Below are positions 6,768-13,508 of a stretch of DNA of 64,000 bases, piece by piece; the first letter of the stretch is position 1; each line of letters opens with the position of its first letter. Source of the stretch: Bacillus sp. ISL-51 (GTDB lineage Bacteria > Bacillota > Bacilli > Bacillales > Bacillaceae). Both the position numbers and the translations under genes were made by a program. The notes under the pieces are model-generated. The model did no database searches, was not told where the DNA came from, and was given only the letters and a program-made list of their open reading frames with translations. Where the stretch lies: the NCBI RefSeq assembly GCF_018613535.1, contig NZ_JAGGQB010000009.1, forward strand, positions 24,001-88,000, read 5' to 3'.

Positions 6768-7709
6768 TCACATTTCTTGAACGAGTACTTTGGCCGTATG
6801 CTGATCGACAATCAGGACATTCGCATATTTTCCGGCCAGCGCCCCGTGAATGGCCGGGACTTTTCTGCTGCCGCCCGCAACCAGGATGGAACGCTCCTTC
6901 ATTTTTAAATCAGCTAGCTCCACACCGATTGTCCTATCGTTAATACTGCTGCTGCAAATATTGCCCCCGGCGTCAAAGAAACGTGAACAAATATCACCGA
7001 CTCCGTGTTTTTTCAGCAATTGCTTTTCTTCTTCGCGGAAATAACCGAGTCTGAAAAGCAGCGCCTCATCCCGAACGGTTCCTACCGTAAACAAAGCGAT
7101 ATTGGCTTGTTTGCCCATTTCAATGATCCGCTTAATATGCCTGTCCTGCTCCACCATGTTTTTCACATCGGCATTGTCAAATATAACGGGCAGCGGCAAA
7201 TATCTCGGCATCGTCTGGAAAGCCTCGGCAAACAGCTGAATCGTTTCTGATGAATACGTATTGACATTGGAATGGCTGATGCCGCCTTTCAGCTGCACCA
7301 CTTCAACGCTCTTCACCTGCTTCGGTTCCATATTCCGGGCCATTTGGTACATTGTCGTTCCCCAGCTTACACCGAGAATGTCGCCATCCTTTACGGTTTT
7401 ATGCATATAGTCTGCGCCGTAGCGGCTCAAGTAATGTGTAATGGCAGGGTAATCGGCACTGGGAGAAAAGACGACGTGCGCCTCAAGCAGACCGTATTTC
7501 TCCTCCAGCTTCGCACCGAGTTCATCCAAATCCTCAAACGGGTCCATGACACGGATTTGGACATATCCTTTTTCTTTGGCATACTGAAGCAGCCTCGAAA
7601 CGGTCGGGCGTGACAGGTTAAGCTGTTCCGCGATTTGCTGCTGGCTGTAATCCGATTGATAATATAGTTTTGCGGCTTCTATGCTGAGCTGCTGTTTTTC
7701 ACGATCCAT
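6768..7709 (-). CDS. deoR: Deoxyribonucleoside operon repressor (SorC/DeoR family)
   Basis: Repressor of deoC-nupC-pdp, relieved by deoxyribose-5-phosphate. It has 313 residues: an N-terminal HTH (YSQQQIAEQLNLSRPTVSRLL, about residues 20–40), then a SorC-type sugar-phosphate-binding domain. The start is ATG at 7709 behind GGAGG (MDREKQQLS, as in B. subtilis); an open frame extends 8 codons further without a ribosome site. It is encoded upstream of deoC on the same strand, separated by the operator region. Confidence 0.95.
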   Translation of the reverse strand: MDREKQQLSIEAAKLYYQSDYSQQQIAEQLNLSRPTVSRLLQYAKEKGYVQIRVMDPFEDLDELGAKLEEKYGLLEAHVVFSPSADYPAITHYLSRYGADYMHKTVKDGDILGVSWGTTMYQMARNMEPKQVKSVEVVQLKGGISHSNVNTYSSETIQLFAEAFQTMPRYLPLPVIFDNADVKNMVEQDRHIKRIIEMGKQANIALFTVGTVRDEALLFRLGYFREEEKQLLKKHGVGDICSRFFDAGGNICSSSINDRTIGVELADLKMKERSILVAGGSRKVPAIHGALAGKYANVLIVDQHTAKVLVQEM

Positions 7710-8105
7710 ATCGAGCCTCCAGATTAGAATCAATATTTTCTATTTATTTTTACGTATTTCAATTTATTTTAACATTGAAGTACTGTATACGCTCCATTAT
7801 CGGATGGTTTAATACACTTAAAAGTGATATTTGAAGACAAATTAATAAAAAACGCTCAATATATAAGGTATTTCTAAAAATGACTATGATTAAAAGCTAT
7901 TTGCTTAATCATTTAAACAATTATAGGAATTTAATCTCCTGTTAAGAAACATTTATATTCCTGGTTACGACTTTAAATATATACACCTGAAGCATACCTC
8001 ATAAAGTAATGAAAGACTATCGCCCTTTATTTTTCAATATTATCTCGCGATCTATGTTAAATGGTAACTATAAGAATAAATACTCAAAAAAATAGAAAAA
8101 AATAG
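7710..8105. other. AT-rich intergenic spacer, left edge of the island
   Basis: About 400 bases without a convincing gene on either strand. Base composition changes here from the deo backbone to strongly AT-rich, so the left boundary of the inserted cluster probably lies in this spacer. No tRNA, attachment repeat or transposon end was recognised. Confidence 0.5.
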
Positions 8106-8134
8106 TTGACATGTAAAAATAATATAGTTAATAT
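8106..8134 (+). promoter_or_regulatory. Sigma-A promoter for the exported-protein/ABC cluster
   Basis: Perfect -35 TTGACA (8106–8111), exactly 17 bases, then -10 TAATAT (8129–8134), about 45 bases before the lipoprotein start. It is the best promoter seen ahead of the cluster. Confidence 0.6.
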
Positions 8135-8180
8135 AAGCTTATTGAATTTTTTTCGAGTAAATAAGAGGAAGTGTTCTTTA

Positions 8181-8759
8181 ATGAAGAAATTAATCTTTTT
8201 ACTATTTTTCACAGTATCCCTCTTAATGATTTCTGCTTGTGGCAAAAATAATGAAGTCAAGATGGTTACAGATTCGGTATCAGAACCAATAGTTGTAATA
8301 ACAGATACCTCTAAAGACCCTAAGAGCGAAAATAATGACTTTTGGTTAGACTCTGAATCGAAAAATATTTATTTCAAAAAAATATTTTGGTCATCTGATT
8401 TTAAGAATGGTCCTTTTTACAGTAAACAAGTAGAGACGAATAATGCTGACATTAAAAAATTACTTAAAGGAAAAAAGACTGATATTGTCCCACTCCCAAA
8501 ACATAATAAGATTGAAATGGTTAAGGAATTAAAGCATCCTACACCAAATTACATACTTGGAAAGATAAGTGGTGAAAACGGGCAAGAAATTACATGGAAA
8601 CAAACTTACAAAGATCCTGGACCTGATACAGATTTTCAAATCAAATTACCATCTTTCAAAGGAAAATCAGCAGTTGTTTCTCTTCGGTTTATTTGGTTGA
8701 ATGAAAATCATGACTGTTACGGTGTGGCAGACAAGATTTTTAATATAAAAAAAATATAG
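8181..8759 (+). CDS. Lipoprotein of unknown function, first gene of the AT-rich cluster
   Basis: A 192-residue predicted lipoprotein: N-terminal MKK, a hydrophobic stretch and lipobox ISAC with the lipidated cysteine near residue 21. The rest is hydrophilic, lysine/asparagine-rich and shows no domain I recognise. ATG at 8181 follows AGAGGAAG; a longer frame to 8106 overlaps the promoter and is rejected. It precedes the first secreted protein by 11 bases. Position suggests a surface accessory or self-protection partner of the exported proteins (inference). Confidence 0.75.
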   Translation: MKKLIFLLFFTVSLLMISACGKNNEVKMVTDSVSEPIVVITDTSKDPKSENNDFWLDSESKNIYFKKIFWSSDFKNGPFYSKQVETNNADIKKLLKGKKTDIVPLPKHNKIEMVKELKHPTPNYILGKISGENGQEITWKQTYKDPGPDTDFQIKLPSFKGKSAVVSLRFIWLNENHDCYGVADKIFNIKKI

Positions 8760-8770
8760 AGGTGACTTAG

Positions 8771-9202
8771 GTGAAAAAAAAGTTAATTGTATTTATGCTT
8801 CTTTTTGGGGTTAGTTTTACTTCTTTAGGTACTGCCAAATTATTAGCGGCCAGCCCACCAGATGGAAACTTTGTAGACACTAAATTTCATTTTGGGTTCT
8901 TGAAGGGAAACCCTTATGATGAGACAACTGAACGTGACAAATACCGAACAACTTATGTATATCAAAATGTAAAAGATGTTAATATTGCTTATACATCTTG
9001 GGTTAAAGCCAAAGGGCATGATGCTTCCCACGGGCATAATTATACAGTAAGAAAAAAAGGCGTAGTATTAATGACAAACTATGCAGTTGAAGATTATAGA
9101 AGTTGGTGGGCGGATTACGTAAACACTTCTATTGCAGCTAAAAAAAATGGAAACGGCCACTCTAATGGCGTATGGAGTCCTGACTACGATAAATATTCGT
9201 GA
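8771..9202 (+). CDS. Secreted DUF2712-like protein, copy 1
   Basis: A 143-residue protein with GTG start behind GAGGTGA. The signal peptide covers residues 1–26 (KKK, hydrophobic core, cleavage after LLA), leaving a 117-residue mature protein without cysteine. The mature part has an aromatic FHFGFLKGNPYDE block, a KYRTTYVY block, a histidine-rich GHDASHGHNYTVRKKG block and the tail SIAAKKNGNGHSNGVW. This arrangement (F-x-F start, RYRxT, VN-x-x-Y-S, final G-x-W) resembles DUF2712 proteins as I remember them; not verified. Function unknown; a bacteriocin-like role is possible. It is paralogous to the next gene. Confidence 0.75.
   Translation: MKKKLIVFMLLFGVSFTSLGTAKLLAASPPDGNFVDTKFHFGFLKGNPYDETTERDKYRTTYVYQNVKDVNIAYTSWVKAKGHDASHGHNYTVRKKGVVLMTNYAVEDYRSWWADYVNTSIAAKKNGNGHSNGVWSPDYDKYS
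9014..9075 (+). repeat. 62-bp block identical to 9470–9531 (copy 1)
   Basis: Inside copy 1 of the secreted protein pair. It begins GGGCATGATG and ends TTAATGAC and is identical base for base, synonymous sites included, to 9470–9531, while flanking parts of the two genes have diverged. Confidence 0.9.
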
Positions 9203-9235
9203 TAAAATGTGTTAGTTTCAGAAGGGAGTTAAAGT

Positions 9236-9640
9236 ATGAAGAAAAAGGTTTTTATTTTCGCTCTTATTATGGGGATGAGCTTTACTTTAATAGGTATTAA
9301 CAAAGTTTTTGCTACTACACCAAAAGATATGAATGCAAGTTATCATTTTGGATTTTTAAAAGGGAATCCATACGATGAGACTCGTAAGCTCACTAAATAT
9401 ACTAGAAGTGCTGTCTATCAAAGAGTAACAGATATAAATATTTCATATACATCTTGGGTTAAAGCAAATGGGCATGATGCTTCCCACGGGCATAATTATA
9501 CAGTAAGAAAAAAAGGCGTAGTATTAATGACGAATTATGCCCTTGAAGATTTTGGAACTAGAGGTACAGTATCAGCTTCAATTGCTGCTAAAAAAGATGG
9601 AAACGGCCATTCTAATGGAGTGTGGAGCTCCGATTATTGA
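9236..9640 (+). CDS. Secreted DUF2712-like protein, copy 2
   Basis: A 134-residue paralogue of the preceding gene with ATG behind AAGGGAG. The signal peptide is also 26 residues (cleavage after VFA), leaving 108 mature residues. The YHFGFLKGNPYDE block, the histidine-rich GHDASHGHNYTVRKKG block and the GNGHSNGVW tail are kept. The stretch between them is changed, and the C-terminal DKYS of copy 1 is missing. The pair could act as a two-component secreted factor, or one copy could be a variant. It lies 56 bases before the first permease gene. Confidence 0.75.
   Translation: MKKKVFIFALIMGMSFTLIGINKVFATTPKDMNASYHFGFLKGNPYDETRKLTKYTRSAVYQRVTDINISYTSWVKANGHDASHGHNYTVRKKGVVLMTNYALEDFGTRGTVSASIAAKKDGNGHSNGVWSSDY
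9470..9531 (+). repeat. 62-bp block identical to 9014–9075 (copy 2)
   Basis: Second copy of the identical block, in the same reading frame, encoding the GHDASHGHNYTVRKKG motif and the following VVLMT. It points to recent duplication or gene conversion. Confidence 0.9.
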
Positions 9641-9695
9641 TAATTTCTTAGGTACTGATTTTTCAGTACCTATTTACTTGTTAGAGGAGGATTCT

Positions 9696-10502
9696 ATGGG
9701 AGTACTAATTTTACACCGACTATTACATAAAAAATCATTTTATATCGCAATTTTAATCGGCTTATTTTGTTCTGTTGCTTATTTTTATACAGATGAACTT
9801 TTCTTAGAAGAATCAATTGAAAAAGACGGCGGAATAGCGTTTACACCTTATACCAAGTGGATGGGGATTGGTGGAATTTCAGACTATCCTACCTTGTTTC
9901 TGTTCCTTTTACCTGTAATAGCCTCTCTCCCATTAGCAGATTTATTCGCAAGTGATCAACGTACTGGCTATACACCTTTTTTATTTATAAGGAAAAAAGC
10001 AAGTTTATACTTTAAGGCTTTATTTGGATTGAATTTTGCCGCAGCTTTTATTACTGGAACGCTGCCTCTAATTGTTAATCTTTATTTATCTTTCATGAAG
10101 TTGCCTAATATTCCGCCTGATCGAGTTATCAATAATGAAATGCCTTTAGTAACAGGCTATACATTTTACCCTGATTTTTATTATAATCATCCATTATTAC
10201 ACATTTTATTCTATATATTACTAATCGGTTTGTTTTCTGGTGTATGGGCTACTTTTGCACTGAGTATAAGTATGTTATTTCACAATATGTTTATTGTTGT
10301 TTTATCACCGTTCGTACTTCAATTTATACTTAATACTGTATTTACAACGTTAGGACAAGATCAAATGCAAGCCAATAGTTTTTTGCAACAACAAGCACCC
10401 AATGGGGCAAGTTGGTCTGCAATGTGCTTTCAGTTAATAGGGATTATGCTTTTAAGTTCAATAATTTTTCTATTAGGAGTTCGCAAATATGTTCGTGATT
10501 AA
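9696..10502 (+). CDS. Polytopic membrane protein, ABC-2-type permease-like (1)
   Basis: A 268-residue protein with about six hydrophobic segments: one near the N-terminus (FYIAILIGLFCSVAYFY), a large exposed loop, and five more. ATG at 9696 follows TTAGAGGAGG; the frame runs open back to 9537 through the previous gene but without a ribosome site. The layout fits an ABC-2-type exporter/immunity permease subunit, and DUF2705-like membrane proteins are a possible relative (from memory). Its 3' end overlaps the next permease by 14 bases. Confidence 0.7.
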   Translation: MGVLILHRLLHKKSFYIAILIGLFCSVAYFYTDELFLEESIEKDGGIAFTPYTKWMGIGGISDYPTLFLFLLPVIASLPLADLFASDQRTGYTPFLFIRKKASLYFKALFGLNFAAAFITGTLPLIVNLYLSFMKLPNIPPDRVINNEMPLVTGYTFYPDFYYNHPLLHILFYILLIGLFSGVWATFALSISMLFHNMFIVVLSPFVLQFILNTVFTTLGQDQMQANSFLQQQAPNGASWSAMCFQLIGIMLLSSIIFLLGVRKYVRD

Positions 10503-11307
10503 GGAATGGAAAAACTTAATAGCTGATTTATGTGCGGATAAATGGAAGATATTGGGTTGGTTTTGCTTATTTATACTGACTATTCTTTTCTTAATTAAGA
10601 GCGCACGACTTGAAGATCTAAAAGGTACGATTAGTATTGCAGATGCAATGGATCAATTTTTCTCAATATATACATTTACCTTCCCTCTCAGTCCACTTTT
10701 TCTTTTATTTGTGTCTATTGGTGTTTTATCATTTTTCTCACTATTTCGTATCATTAGATACAGATCACGTTCAGAACTTTTTTTAGCTTTCATTGCTCGA
10801 TTGTTTGGTATTTCCTTATGTTTTACATTATTATTATTATTATTTGGATATATTATTAGTGGAATTTGGTGCGGTGATTTTGTACATTACTGGGACACAA
10901 CAGCAGGAACACCATTTATAAGATATGGAGACCAAATAAACCTCACATCTTTTTCAGGGATATGGATGATTACTCGTTATTTTATTACGAGTACTCTCGT
11001 GTTCTTTTTCATTTCGGCTGCTGTTAGTGCTATATATTTATTGTTATCAAATTACATATATAGTTTTATCGTTGTAATGTGTTTAATTATAATGGACCGT
11101 ATGATGAACAACTTTTATGATTTTTCAATTTTGCATGATCACTTATCATTAAATTTAGACCAATGGTTAGTACCAGAATCGTTTGAAACCACAGTCTTTC
11201 TTTTTACAGGCGGAACAATACTTTTATTTTCTATAATATATATACAAATGGTCAAAAAAGATTATTCAGATGGAAAAATTGATGAGAACAATGTTAAGAA
11301 GAACTAA
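10489..11307 (+). CDS. Polytopic membrane protein, ABC-2-type permease-like (2)
   Basis: A 272-residue protein with about six membrane segments and a charged C-terminal tail. It starts with ATG inside the end of the previous permease gene, so the two are probably made together as a heterodimeric channel. The ATPase gene follows after 16 bases. No substrate can be read from the sequence; the adjoining secreted proteins are the natural candidates (inference). Confidence 0.7.
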   Translation: MFVIKEWKNLIADLCADKWKILGWFCLFILTILFLIKSARLEDLKGTISIADAMDQFFSIYTFTFPLSPLFLLFVSIGVLSFFSLFRIIRYRSRSELFLAFIARLFGISLCFTLLLLLFGYIISGIWCGDFVHYWDTTAGTPFIRYGDQINLTSFSGIWMITRYFITSTLVFFFISAAVSAIYLLLSNYIYSFIVVMCLIIMDRMMNNFYDFSILHDHLSLNLDQWLVPESFETTVFLFTGGTILLFSIIYIQMVKKDYSDGKIDENNVKKN

Positions 11308-11323
11308 TAATGGAGGTTGAAAA

Positions 11324-11983
11324 ATGTCGAAAGTAATCATAGAAGCTAAAGATATTGTAAAAACATTCAAAAGAAATACGGTACTAGATAGTATTTCTTT
11401 TAAGTTAAATAAAGGCGAGATTTACGGATTTCAAGGACGGAATGGATCTGGTAAGACTATGTTGCTTCGTGTACTCTCTGGATTGATGCGCCCTACTAAA
11501 GGACAAGTTTTAATCAACGGAACTAATATGACAAAGCAAGGAGATTTCCCTAACAATATTGGCGTTTTAATCGAGTATCCTGGGTTTGTACCTGATTACA
11601 CCGGCTTTAAGAATTTAAAGTTGCTTTCAAAAATTCAATCAAAAATTTCTGATAATGACATTAAGGAAGCTATTAAAAGTGTCGGCCTAAATCCTGATGA
11701 TAAAAAAAAATATAAAAAATATTCCTTAGGCATGAAGCAACGCCTTGGAATTGCTCAAGCTATTATGGAAGATCAACAAATCATAATGCTGGATGAACCC
11801 ACAAATGCTTTAGATCGGGAAGCTGTAAAAGTGGTTGAAAAACTTTTATTTAAATTAAAGGCTGAAGGAAAAACCATATTAGTTGCTAGTCACGACTCTG
11901 AAACACTTAATGCAGTATCAGATAAAATTTTTGATATTGATTATGGACGTATTATCCGGGAGTCTGAGAGGAATGTGAATTAA
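11324..11983 (+). CDS. ABC transporter ATP-binding protein
   Basis: A 219-residue nucleotide-binding domain with Walker A GRNGSGKT (about residue 38), signature LGMKQR, Walker B IIMLDEPT and an H-loop VASHDSE. It is close to the short ATPases of antibiotic/bacteriocin export and self-immunity systems. Only one ATPase is present for three candidate permeases in the cluster. ATG follows TGGAGGTTG; its stop overlaps the next start (TAATG). Confidence 0.9.
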   Translation: MSKVIIEAKDIVKTFKRNTVLDSISFKLNKGEIYGFQGRNGSGKTMLLRVLSGLMRPTKGQVLINGTNMTKQGDFPNNIGVLIEYPGFVPDYTGFKNLKLLSKIQSKISDNDIKEAIKSVGLNPDDKKKYKKYSLGMKQRLGIAQAIMEDQQIIMLDEPTNALDREAVKVVEKLLFKLKAEGKTILVASHDSETLNAVSDKIFDIDYGRIIRESERNVN

Positions 11984-12486
11984 TGAAGAAAAAACTATAT
12001 TTAGCTTTAGTATTAATTTGTTTGATTTTCGTTACTGCATATAGTATTTATCAATACCGTGCTACTAATAAAAACTATGCTGGTTACAAATTATCTATTG
12101 TTAATTCTAAACTTGACACACCAATAAAAGCCTTAGGCCTTACACAAACATTCGGTAAAGCAAAAACTGAAGTAGTGGAAGATGATATGTTGAACAAAAT
12201 AACAATTTTTTCCATACCCTTCACTTTTAAAAATGACACTAATAAAGCTGTTGCATTTCATCCAGAATTTTACCGGTTGATGCGTGGAGAAGATATGACG
12301 CAAAGTATCGACTTTATTGATAATCGTACAAAAAAAAGAGTTTATTCTATCCCTCCTTACACAACAATCAAAGGTGAAGCTAAATTCACCTATAATGATA
12401 TGAATAAAACTGCACCATTACAACTAAATATTAACTCTAGGGATGGTATGTCTATAAATTTGTTCAAAATTCCAGTTTACAAATAA
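11983..12486 (+). CDS. Membrane-anchored extracytoplasmic protein, unknown
   Basis: A 167-residue protein with a single N-terminal membrane segment (LYLALVLICLIFVTAYSIY) and a 130-residue outside domain. The domain alternates beta-type hydrophobic strands and ends in FKIPVY, suggesting an immunoglobulin-like or DUF4352-like fold; this is only an impression. It has no lipobox. It overlaps the ATPase stop by one base, so it is translationally coupled to the transporter and may be an accessory or immunity subunit. Confidence 0.65.
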   Translation: MKKKLYLALVLICLIFVTAYSIYQYRATNKNYAGYKLSIVNSKLDTPIKALGLTQTFGKAKTEVVEDDMLNKITIFSIPFTFKNDTNKAVAFHPEFYRLMRGEDMTQSIDFIDNRTKKRVYSIPPYTTIKGEAKFTYNDMNKTAPLQLNINSRDGMSINLFKIPVYK

Positions 12487-12508
12487 GGCTTTATGGAAGT
12501 GAAATTCG

Positions 12509-13339
12509 ATGAAAGATTATTTCTTATTAATAAAAAGAGATCTGCAAACTGGCTTTCAACATATTAAAAACAACTTCATTATTTTTCTAATTCTCACGCT
12601 GTTTTTTTTGTTGTACCCAGTACTTCTGTTAAAATCATATGATCAAAATAGTTATTATTCGTATTTAGATGCGTTACTAATTGGTATCGGAGGTGTACCA
12701 ATTGATCTTGTGAAGCAACACTCTTTTAAATTCCCTTTTTTATGGTTGTTTATTCAACTAAGCTTAATTTTTATTATGAATACATGGGCAAGAACAGACA
12801 TTATAAATTTCAGCTCATTTACTAGAATTAGAATACGTAAAGTATATTTACTTATCATTAGTAAATATACCTGTACTTTTATTGTAACATTGATCTACTG
12901 CTCTCTAATATTTTTATTAACACTTTTTCTATGCTCTTTATTTGGGATCCAGTCAACAAATTATACAGAATATACTTTGCATACACTCAGTTTGTCAGAT
13001 TTAAAAATGCCTTATCTACAGTTAACATGGTTCATCATTTTGTTGAATTTTTCAAGTGTACTCTGTGCTGTTTTTCTCTTCACAACACTTTCAATAATGA
13101 TAAAACCAGTTTATTCCTTTTTAATCATAACTGCATGGTACGTGCTGTCTATTTTCAGAGACTCCTTTGTTTTTATAGGAAATCTGAGTATGGTTTTAAG
13201 ACAGCCCCTATTTCACCAAAATGTTTTTACCTCTATTATGATCACCTTGTTGATACAAATAATAATTATTTTTATGTGTGTAATTACTTCCATTATATTT
13301 CTTAACAAAAAAGACATCATAGGGGATTCTAACGATTAA
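12509..13339 (+). CDS. Polytopic membrane protein, permease-like (3)
   Basis: A 276-residue protein with an N-terminal amphipathic stretch (MKDYFLLIKRDLQTGF) typical of ABC-2 permeases and about six hydrophobic segments. ATG follows GGAAGTG. It is the last gene of the AT-rich cluster and ends about 140 bases before a terminator shared with yxeH. It may replace one of the two upstream permeases or form a second transporter using the same ATPase. No family is recognised with confidence. Confidence 0.65.
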   Translation: MKDYFLLIKRDLQTGFQHIKNNFIIFLILTLFFLLYPVLLLKSYDQNSYYSYLDALLIGIGGVPIDLVKQHSFKFPFLWLFIQLSLIFIMNTWARTDIINFSSFTRIRIRKVYLLIISKYTCTFIVTLIYCSLIFLLTLFLCSLFGIQSTNYTEYTLHTLSLSDLKMPYLQLTWFIILLNFSSVLCAVFLFTTLSIMIKPVYSFLIITAWYVLSIFRDSFVFIGNLSMVLRQPLFHQNVFTSIMITLLIQIIIIFMCVITSIIFLNKKDIIGDSND

Positions 13340-13480
13340 AAATACTGAGCTAAAGAATTATTTCAAATTTTAAAGGGTTTAATCTTAATCATTTCTGAAA
13401 TCGACTTTAATATTTTAACTATCCTCTCGGTTAATGTAACTACAATATTTCTTAATTAGTATTTAAACTTTTTTCAAAAA

Positions 13481-13508
13481 GCACCCTCTGATAGGGTGCC
13501 TATTTTTT
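13481..13508. terminator. Bidirectional terminator between the cluster and yxeH
   Basis: A 7-bp stem GCACCCT/AGGGTGC with loop CTGAT. The plus side is followed by CTATTTTTT and the minus side by TTTTTG, so it can end both converging units. Confidence 0.75.

What the first reader, a model, noticed from the sequence alone, without database searches (positions are those of the whole stretch)
8106..13480. AT-rich cluster: lipoprotein, two secreted paralogues, one ABC ATPase, three permease-like proteins
Seen: seven tightly spaced or overlapping genes plus a lipoprotein behind one sigma-A promoter, flanked by deoR and yxeH, far more AT-rich than either. Two genes encode cysteine-free secreted proteins of 117 and 108 mature residues resembling DUF2712. 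Known: secreted small proteins beside ABC-2 permeases, a lipoprotein and a membrane-anchored protein are the usual make-up of bacteriocin/self-immunity or surface-signalling loci. Inference: an undescribed exported-protein system in which the Sec-secreted pair acts outside and the ABC complex with its accessory proteins gives tolerance or sensing.
Basis: partly seen in the sequence, partly recalled or inferred. Interest (0 to 1): 0.78.

Follow-up and report, generated by a model that had tools for sequence, protein, structure and literature searches.

The report
Candidate bacteriocin island with ABC immunity
A Bacillus chromosome carries an inserted, AT-rich block of eight genes that looks like a new kind of secreted protein toxin together with the membrane pump and surface proteins that would protect the producer, and relatives of it turn up on plasmids and chromosomes of other Gram-positive bacteria.

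Summary
The eight-gene cluster is real. It lies in a 5.75-kb, 31% G+C segment (7721-13475) between deoR and yxeH that is missing from this site in the 4 of 4 closest relatives examined. It encodes a lipoprotein, two secreted cysteine-free paralogues, three permease-like proteins, an ABC ATPase and an anchored beta-sandwich protein. The secreted family has no significant Pfam, NCBIfam or PDB-sequence match; its model is all-beta. Permease 1 is homologous to that of the DUF2712 (yybN-type) operon, of unknown function in print, but the secreted proteins are not measurably DUF2712. Related cassettes occur in Bacillus, Tumebacillus, Clostridia and lactic acid bacteria, some on small plasmids. The best functional clue is an asymmetry: of 301 Lactobacillaceae genomes, 52 have permease 1 and 20 of those the secreted gene (3 as fragments); only 3 weak, probably spurious secreted hits lie elsewhere. 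Near-identical L. plantarum-group plasmids differ by clean absence of the secreted gene while the transporter stays. The secreted gene has the highest dN/dS, and a hairpin follows it in 19 of 24 loci tested. Best reading: a bacteriocin-like toxin with an ABC immunity module. Killing was not tested.

The parts
7721..13475 (.). AT-rich inserted segment (island) between deoR and yxeH
   Evidence: Flank matches to 4 of 4 nearest relatives stop at 7720 and resume at 13476, where those genomes have 35-40 bp; G+C 30.8% vs 45.8%
8106..8134 (+). sigma-A-like promoter candidate TTGACA-17-TAATAT
   Evidence: such sites are about as frequent in shuffles, so weak
8181..8759 (+). lipoprotein (192 aa), candidate LanI-like accessory
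   Evidence: 36-38% identical lipoprotein at the same position in pumilus-group cassettes; no Pfam hit
8771..9202 (+). secreted protein A (143 aa, signal sequence judged by eye, cysteine-free all-beta domain)
9236..9640 (+). secreted protein B (134 aa), paralogue of A, 65-66% identical, with a shared tract of about 62 identical nt
9649..9672 (+). 10-pair stem-loop between the secreted genes and the transporter genes (attenuator or stabiliser candidate)
   Evidence: fold better than shuffles after the secreted gene in 19 of 24 loci tested
9696..10502 (+). permease 1 (268 aa), homologous to the first permease of the DUF2712 (yybN-type) operon
10489..11307 (+). permease 2 (272 aa)
11324..11983 (+). 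ABC ATPase (219 aa); best NCBIfam model TIGR03740, lantibiotic protection ABC ATPase, below its cut-off (172.4 vs 309.75 bits)
11983..12486 (+). membrane-anchored protein (167 aa): one N-terminal helix plus an MPT63/YjhA-like (DUF4352-type) beta sandwich
   Evidence: DUF4352 profile hit in 1 of 12 homologues
12509..13339 (+). permease 3 (276 aa)
13481..13499 (.). terminator-like hairpin of the old site (also present in the empty sites), now 3' of the cassette

Best explanation
The cluster is a horizontally acquired bacteriocin-like (antagonism and self-protection) cassette. The two paralogous proteins are exported by Sec as unmodified, cysteine-free beta-sandwich proteins of about 12 kDa and act at the surface of competing, probably related, Gram-positive cells. 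The ABC ATPase with the permeases, the DUF4352-type anchored protein and the lipoprotein form the immunity module, which clears or blocks the toxin at the producer's membrane in the manner of LanFEG plus LanI. A hairpin after the secreted genes would make their mRNA more abundant than that of the transporter. Shown here: gene content, insertion, related cassettes on plasmids and chromosomes, transporter modules without the secreted gene, highest dN/dS in the secreted gene. Inferred: export, killing, target and protection.
For: (1) Asymmetric co-occurrence: permease 1 profile in 52 of 301 genomes of the family of L. xiangfangensis at E<=1e-6; secreted-family profile in 23 of 301 at E<=0.01. 20 genomes have both, 3 of these as partial secreted hits (G522, G552, G598); the other 3 secreted hits (G555, G582, G762) cover only model positions 1-70 of ORFs of 263-289 aa and look spurious. 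So 32 of 52 permease-bearing genomes lack it (24 of 44 at permease E<=1e-20, 10 of 20 at E<=1e-55). (2) 6 of 16 plasmid records with permease 1 lack the secreted gene beside the cassette, and it is nowhere in those 6 records at E<=1, while 4 of 4 positive controls ring. The 6 share flanks 97.7-99.7% identical with a plasmid that has it and lack the same stretch of about 840 bp, so this is one event. A chromosomal pair is L056 (present) and L055 (absent; a MAG). (3) Site empty in 4 of 4 relatives. (4) dN/dS in the pumilus group: secreted gene 0.46, lipoprotein 0.26, other cassette genes 0.17-0.21, five flanking genes 0.02-0.12. (5) ATPase's best NCBIfam model is lantibiotic protection. (6) One cassette beside a Blp class II bacteriocin locus on a lactococcal plasmid. 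(7) Tandem secreted paralogues, two here, three in L029/L030. (8) Hairpin after the secreted gene in 19 of 24 loci tested.
Against: No activity data. The secreted fold has no PDB match at Foldseek E<=0.001, and its weak neighbours are mostly generic beta sandwiches. No secreted member has a bacteriocin-family hit at E<=1, PF09683 (lactococcin 972) included. Absence of the secreted gene may partly reflect divergence beyond the profile: L128 was found only at E 7.6e-4, and DUF2712 is not recognised as related. A dN/dS of 0.46 can also mean relaxed constraint and was not tested for significance. In the window's genus 14 of 15 permease-bearing genomes keep the secreted gene; the exception (G006) holds broken remnants, so intact modules without it were seen only in Lactobacillales. 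The ATPase is below the lantibiotic-protection cut-off.
Confidence: 0.62

Rival explanations
1. A surface-signalling or sensing system: the secreted proteins are ligands and the ABC complex with its anchored and lipoprotein partners senses them, without killing.
For: A Rap-type regulator (RapH_N, tested in L025 and L128) lies directly upstream of the secreted gene in two lineages; L040 has a helix-turn-helix regulator between the secreted gene and permease 1; the cassette has an extracytoplasmic anchored domain.
Against: In the mapped loci I saw no sensor kinase inside the cassette (by reading the maps, not by a family search); receiver modules without the ligand in 32 of 52 genomes are hard to explain for self-signalling.
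Confidence: 0.13
2. The ABC transporter exports or places the secreted protein (or another substrate), and the secreted protein is a cell-surface or wall-binding factor for adhesion or envelope maintenance.
For: Weak fold similarity to carbohydrate- and collagen-binding beta sandwiches; near-strict linkage of the secreted gene to the transporter.
Against: Each secreted protein has its own signal sequence (judged by eye), so it should need no ABC exporter; an exporter without cargo in 32 of 52 genomes would be useless; patchy, plasmid-borne, inserted distribution argues against a housekeeping role.
Confidence: 0.13
3. The transporter is a stand-alone resistance module against some other antimicrobial, and the secreted gene is an optional regulator or decoy.
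For: Modules without the secreted gene; two tandem modules without it in L054.
Against: The secreted gene usually lies directly before permease 1 (exceptions: opposite strand in L042 and L065, another gene between in L040 and L048) and is hardly ever found without it.
Confidence: 0.1

Closest known systems
DUF2712/DUF2705 operon of the B. subtilis group (named yybNMLKJ from recall; the DUF2712 control rings in B. subtilis)
   Same: Small secreted protein directly before a homologous first permease (98.6%, E 6e-16), with further permeases and an ABC ATPase; ATPase 54% identical to pumilus-group cassette ATPases; well-folded hairpin after the secreted gene in L035 and L076 but not clearly in L037 and L047. 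In print the yybN operon is A+T-rich, postulated to be horizontally acquired, bound by Rok, and 'of unknown function' (passages of PMC2978689 and PMC11841835).
   Different: Secreted protein not detectably related; in the window the third permease is last, after the ATPase and anchored protein, whereas L035 has all three before the ATPase (L016, L025 and L127 resemble L035 in this); no anchored protein or lipoprotein in L035, though L076 has one more unnamed gene after the ATPase.
Lactococcin 972 (class IId bacteriocin)
   Same: Unmodified, cysteine-free bacteriocin (passages of PMC8538875); Sec export, an ABC immunity partner and a beta-sandwich fold are recalled.
   Different: No PF09683 hit among 16 members; lactococcin 972 is about 66 residues (recalled); window ATPase matches TIGR03608 only at 124 vs 254.85 bits.
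Lantibiotic immunity LanFEG plus LanI
   Same: One ATPase with several permeases plus a lipoprotein; ATPase's best model is TIGR03740; [quoted passage not shown]
   Different: No lantibiotic modification gene among the eight genes; ATPase below the family cut-off.
MPT63/YjhA/DUF4352 beta-sandwich proteins
   Same: Fold of the anchored protein; 1 of 12 homologues hits DUF4352 at 1.3e-12.
   Different: Window protein itself has no Pfam hit.

Membership tests
DUF2712 (PF10916) | Match of the secreted proteins to the Pfam model | tested here: not met
   No hit at E<=1 for window proteins or for 16 members; hhalign 11.9%; PF10916 search finds nothing in the own genome
DUF2712/DUF2705 (yybN-type) operon | Homologous permease directly after the secreted gene | tested here: met
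   hhalign 98.6%, E 6e-16 over 252 columns; position compared in L035, L047, L076
DUF2712/DUF2705 (yybN-type) operon | A DUF2705 permease | tested here: not met
   Present in L035, strong in the third permease and just above cut-off in the first; window permeases have no Pfam hit at E<=1
Lactococcin 972 family (PF09683) | Match to the structural-protein model | tested here: not met
   Not among the hits at E<=1 for 16 members
Lantibiotic immunity LanFEG | ATPase above the TIGR03740 cut-off | tested here: not met
   172.4 vs 309.75 bits, though first of 192 families listed
Bacteriocin-immunity system (functional class) | Immunity module occurs without the toxin gene, toxin not without immunity | tested here: met
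   in Lactobacillales, with the 3 weak contrary hits judged spurious
Bacteriocin-immunity system (functional class) | Secreted product inhibits relatives; the module protects | not testable with these tools
   Needs the bench
DUF4352-type anchored domain | Fold or profile match | tested here: met
   Foldseek E 5e-5 to 9e-4 to 4eae, 5bxg, 4r4g, 3cfu, 1lmi; profile hit in 1 of 12 homologues, not in the window protein

The most novel reading that the evidence does not exclude
A widespread, unrecognised class of Sec-secreted protein bacteriocins: unmodified beta-sandwich proteins of about 12 kDa with a C-terminal W-S-P-D motif, each protected by a dedicated ABC complex with a DUF4352-type anchored partner, spread across Bacillota by plasmids and chromosomal insertion. 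The Rok-bound yybN operon of B. subtilis, long without a function, would be a divergent member.
Probability: 0.45. Interest if true: 0.8.

Novelty: new variant of a known kind. Interest (0 to 1): 0.62.

Why it matters
If right, it names a new family of protein bacteriocins that Pfam and NCBIfam do not model and that plasmid annotation of Lactiplantibacillus and Lactococcus lists as hypothetical proteins. It also gives a testable function to the yybN operon, a Rok target still called 'of unknown function' in 2024 (PMC11841835, passages). The natural pair of near-identical plasmids with and without the secreted gene makes the toxin-immunity idea directly testable.

Tried and rejected
Rejected: DUF2712 membership of the secreted pair; lactococcin 972 membership; phage origin (a viral-contig scan with P0001, which reaches close relatives only, found none; one unannotated 'Bacteriophage sp.' faecal contig, L048, carries a cassette, which proves no phage); a defence-system label (PADLOC hits only the ATPase); housekeeping role at this site (empty in 4 of 4 relatives). 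Led nowhere: PDB sequence searches; PHROGs (best 0.004 for secreted A); the weak Pfam and NCBIfam hits of single members (best E 0.0063 and 0.0086; among them SelX in 3 of 16 members, taken as chance); paper searches for yybNMLKJ, DUF2712/DUF2705/WxPxxD and L. plantarum Sec-secreted systems (no relevant paper). Two papers that mention yybN once (PMC4591507, PMC6212828; listing) were not opened. No complex of secreted protein with lipoprotein or anchored protein was modelled. A crude search for another secreted ORF within 1.5 kb of permease 1 in the 10 strictest modules without the secreted gene listed only short ORFs, none convincing by eye. The 6 plasmids without the gene share one junction and are one event, not six. 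In the hairpin count several of the 24 rows are near-identical relatives, and other duplicates and opposite-strand loci were not given to it, so 19 of 24 overstates independence. In the dN/dS means identical pairs were dropped, and flank names there are recalled.
Full report
WHAT IS THERE. Window 8181-13339 holds eight same-strand genes, tightly packed: lipoprotein, secreted A, secreted B, permease 1, permease 2, ABC ATPase, anchored protein, permease 3. The segment 7721-13475 has 30.8% G+C against 45.8% for the rest of the window. The left neighbour is DeoR and the right neighbour a Cof-type HAD phosphatase. In the own genome the secreted family has only these two members at E<=0.001.

IT IS AN INSERTION. 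The YxeH search matched 44 of 44 genus genomes. In the four genomes other than the window's own whose YxeH is at least 89% identical (G016, 98%; G002, G040, G026, 89%), deoR and yxeH lie next to each other. Matches to the window end at 7720 and resume at 13476, and those genomes have 35-40 bp in between. I saw no target-site duplication at the junctions and no mobility gene among the eight. The right-hand terminator-like hairpin (13481-13499) belongs to the old site. Permease 1 is absent from those four genomes.

THE SECRETED FAMILY. For the 16 members scanned, the best Pfam and NCBIfam hits are E 0.0063 and 0.0086, scattered over unrelated families; the window pair has nothing better than 0.042. 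PDB sequence searches give nothing below E 0.09. In the 21-member alignment A5, K57, W135 and D138 are invariant and T52, Y64, S86, N103, E107, G133 and S136 nearly so; the C-terminus usually reads W-S-P-D. AlphaFold on a 12-member alignment gives mean pLDDT 81.5, with 89 residues at 90 or more and residues 1-29 (the signal region) below 50, an all-beta domain apart from one short helix. Foldseek finds no PDB match at E<=0.001; weak neighbours are nucleoplasmin, collagen-binding, CBM86 and other beta sandwiches. A and B share a tract of about 62 identical nucleotides inside otherwise diverged sequence, suggesting gene conversion.

THE OTHER PARTS. The ATPase scores best with TIGR03740, lantibiotic protection, but under its cut-off. 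Permease 1 is homologous to the first permease of the DUF2712 operon. The anchored protein models as one N-terminal helix plus an MPT63/YjhA-like sandwich, and 1 of 12 homologues is a DUF4352 protein. By blastp in the mapped loci, this lipoprotein was seen only here and in the pumilus-group cassettes; L048 and L063 carry other lipoprotein-like genes near the secreted gene.

WHERE ELSE. With P0001 as query, 12 of 80 family genomes match, in 1 of 6 genera. Permease 1 is in 15 of 44 genus genomes. 14 of the 15 have a secreted gene, two of them (G018, G019) found only with the profile; the fifteenth, G006, holds broken remnants. A class-wide sample gave the secreted profile in 2 of 398 genomes, the own one and G257. 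Sites differ: pumilus-group cassettes beside a sulfur-transfer gene block (names recalled), subtilis-group ones between a rap gene and an agmatinase gene, or near a two-component gene pair (recalled as degS/degU) with three tandem secreted copies in L029/L030. A named-genome scan with permease 1 gave 15 loci, among them B. pumilus, B. altitudinis, B. xiamenensis, B. australimaris, B. tequilensis, Tumebacillus avium, Enterococcus cecorum, several lactobacilli and a Lachnospiraceae MAG. 11 of 15 have the secreted gene beside it; L054, L055, L058 and L059 do not, and it is nowhere in those four genomes at E<=1. tblastn of permease 1 hits 16 plasmid records: 11 Lactiplantibacillus, 4 Lactococcus, 1 Vescimonas. 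10 of 16 have a secreted gene beside the cassette: found by profile in L016, L017, L040, L041, L042 and L046 and L018 and L065, and by identical protein accession in L064 and L068. In L042 it is truncated, and in L042 and L065 it lies on the other strand. 6 of 16 lack it.

THE TEST OF FUNCTION. A toxin-immunity pair predicts immunity without toxin, but not toxin without immunity. Near-identical L. plantarum and L. paraplantarum plasmids show this directly: L018 (with the gene) and the six plasmids without it match at 97.7-99.2% over the left 1,454 bp and at 99.5-99.7% over the longest right-hand stretch. All six lack the same stretch of about 840 bp holding the secreted gene and its hairpin, while permease 1 carries the same protein accession in L018 and four of them. 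The junction looks like a microhomology deletion, but direction is not proven. In a sample of 301 genomes of the family of L. xiangfangensis (Lactobacillaceae), permease 1 is in 52 and the secreted family in 23; 20 have both, of which G522, G552 and G598 are partial hits, and the 3 others are weak partial hits in longer ORFs. The sample includes three genomes already known to me (G470, G471, G473). This asymmetry is the strongest argument for antagonism and against self-signalling or export of the secreted protein by the transporter. Against it: in the window's genus no intact module without the secreted gene was seen.

RATES AND RNA. In six pumilus-group loci, pairwise Nei-Gojobori dN/dS is 0.464 for the secreted gene, 0.255 for the lipoprotein, 0.17-0.21 for the rest of the cassette and 0.02-0.12 for five flanking genes; cassette dS (0.03-0.16) is lower than most flanking dS (0.16-0.47), consistent with recent spread. 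These are pairwise means without a significance test; identical pairs were dropped, and permease 3 and the flanking genes were recovered in only 4 or 5 of the 6 loci. The stretch after the secreted gene folds better than at least 195 of 200 dinucleotide shuffles in 19 of 24 loci given, the window included (z -2.6, 5 of 200 shuffles as good); the 5 failures are L056, L060, L061, L046 and L063. In L048 and L040 the next gene is not permease 1. Of four DUF2712 operons, L035 and L076 pass and L037 and L047 do not.

KNOWN OR NEW. In the open papers searched, the yybN operon is described as A+T-rich, postulated to be horizontally acquired, bound by Rok and of unknown function (passages of PMC2978689 and PMC11841835), and YybJKL is listed as an ABC system of unknown function (passages of PMC11466899). 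I saw no paper on the secreted family. The link from L035 to the name yybNMLKJ is recalled; what the calls show is that DUF2712 rings in B. subtilis and that L035 holds DUF2712, DUF2705 and an ATPase in that order. ABC-transporter immunity genes for bacteriocins have a published precedent (title and start of abstract of PMC10598978, search listing only).

VERDICT. A real, inserted, eight-gene antagonism-type cassette with an undescribed secreted protein family. What it works like: a Sec-secreted bacteriocin with LanFEG/LanI-like immunity (0.62). What it is a member of: a broader group with the yybN-type operon at the permease level; not DUF2712, lactococcin 972 or LanFEG by the tests made.

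Noticed in passing
window 7709-7760: The insertion replaces the DNA just upstream of the deoR start codon, so deoR has probably lost its original promoter region (sequence comparison).
   Followed up: partly
L025 7301-8443 and L128 6179-7252: A Rap-type protein (RapH_N) gene lies directly upstream of the secreted gene in two lineages, hinting at quorum control.
   Followed up: partly
L129 (G006) 7800-8765: Broken remnants of a cassette (ATPase and permease 1 fragments) without a secreted gene.
   Followed up: no
L043, L044, L045, L067, L069: YxeA-family small protein gene annotated in five of the six L. plantarum plasmids without the secreted gene; DUF1093 checked in L043 only.
   Followed up: no
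L037 2268-3203: A polyprenyl synthetase-family gene (ComQ-like by recall) next to a DUF2712 gene.
   Followed up: no
L054 5261-11304: Two tandem transporter modules without any secreted-family gene in Enterococcus cecorum.
   Followed up: partly
L046 6456-12340: A distant cassette on a Vescimonas plasmid near an S26 signal peptidase gene and a site-specific integrase gene.
   Followed up: no
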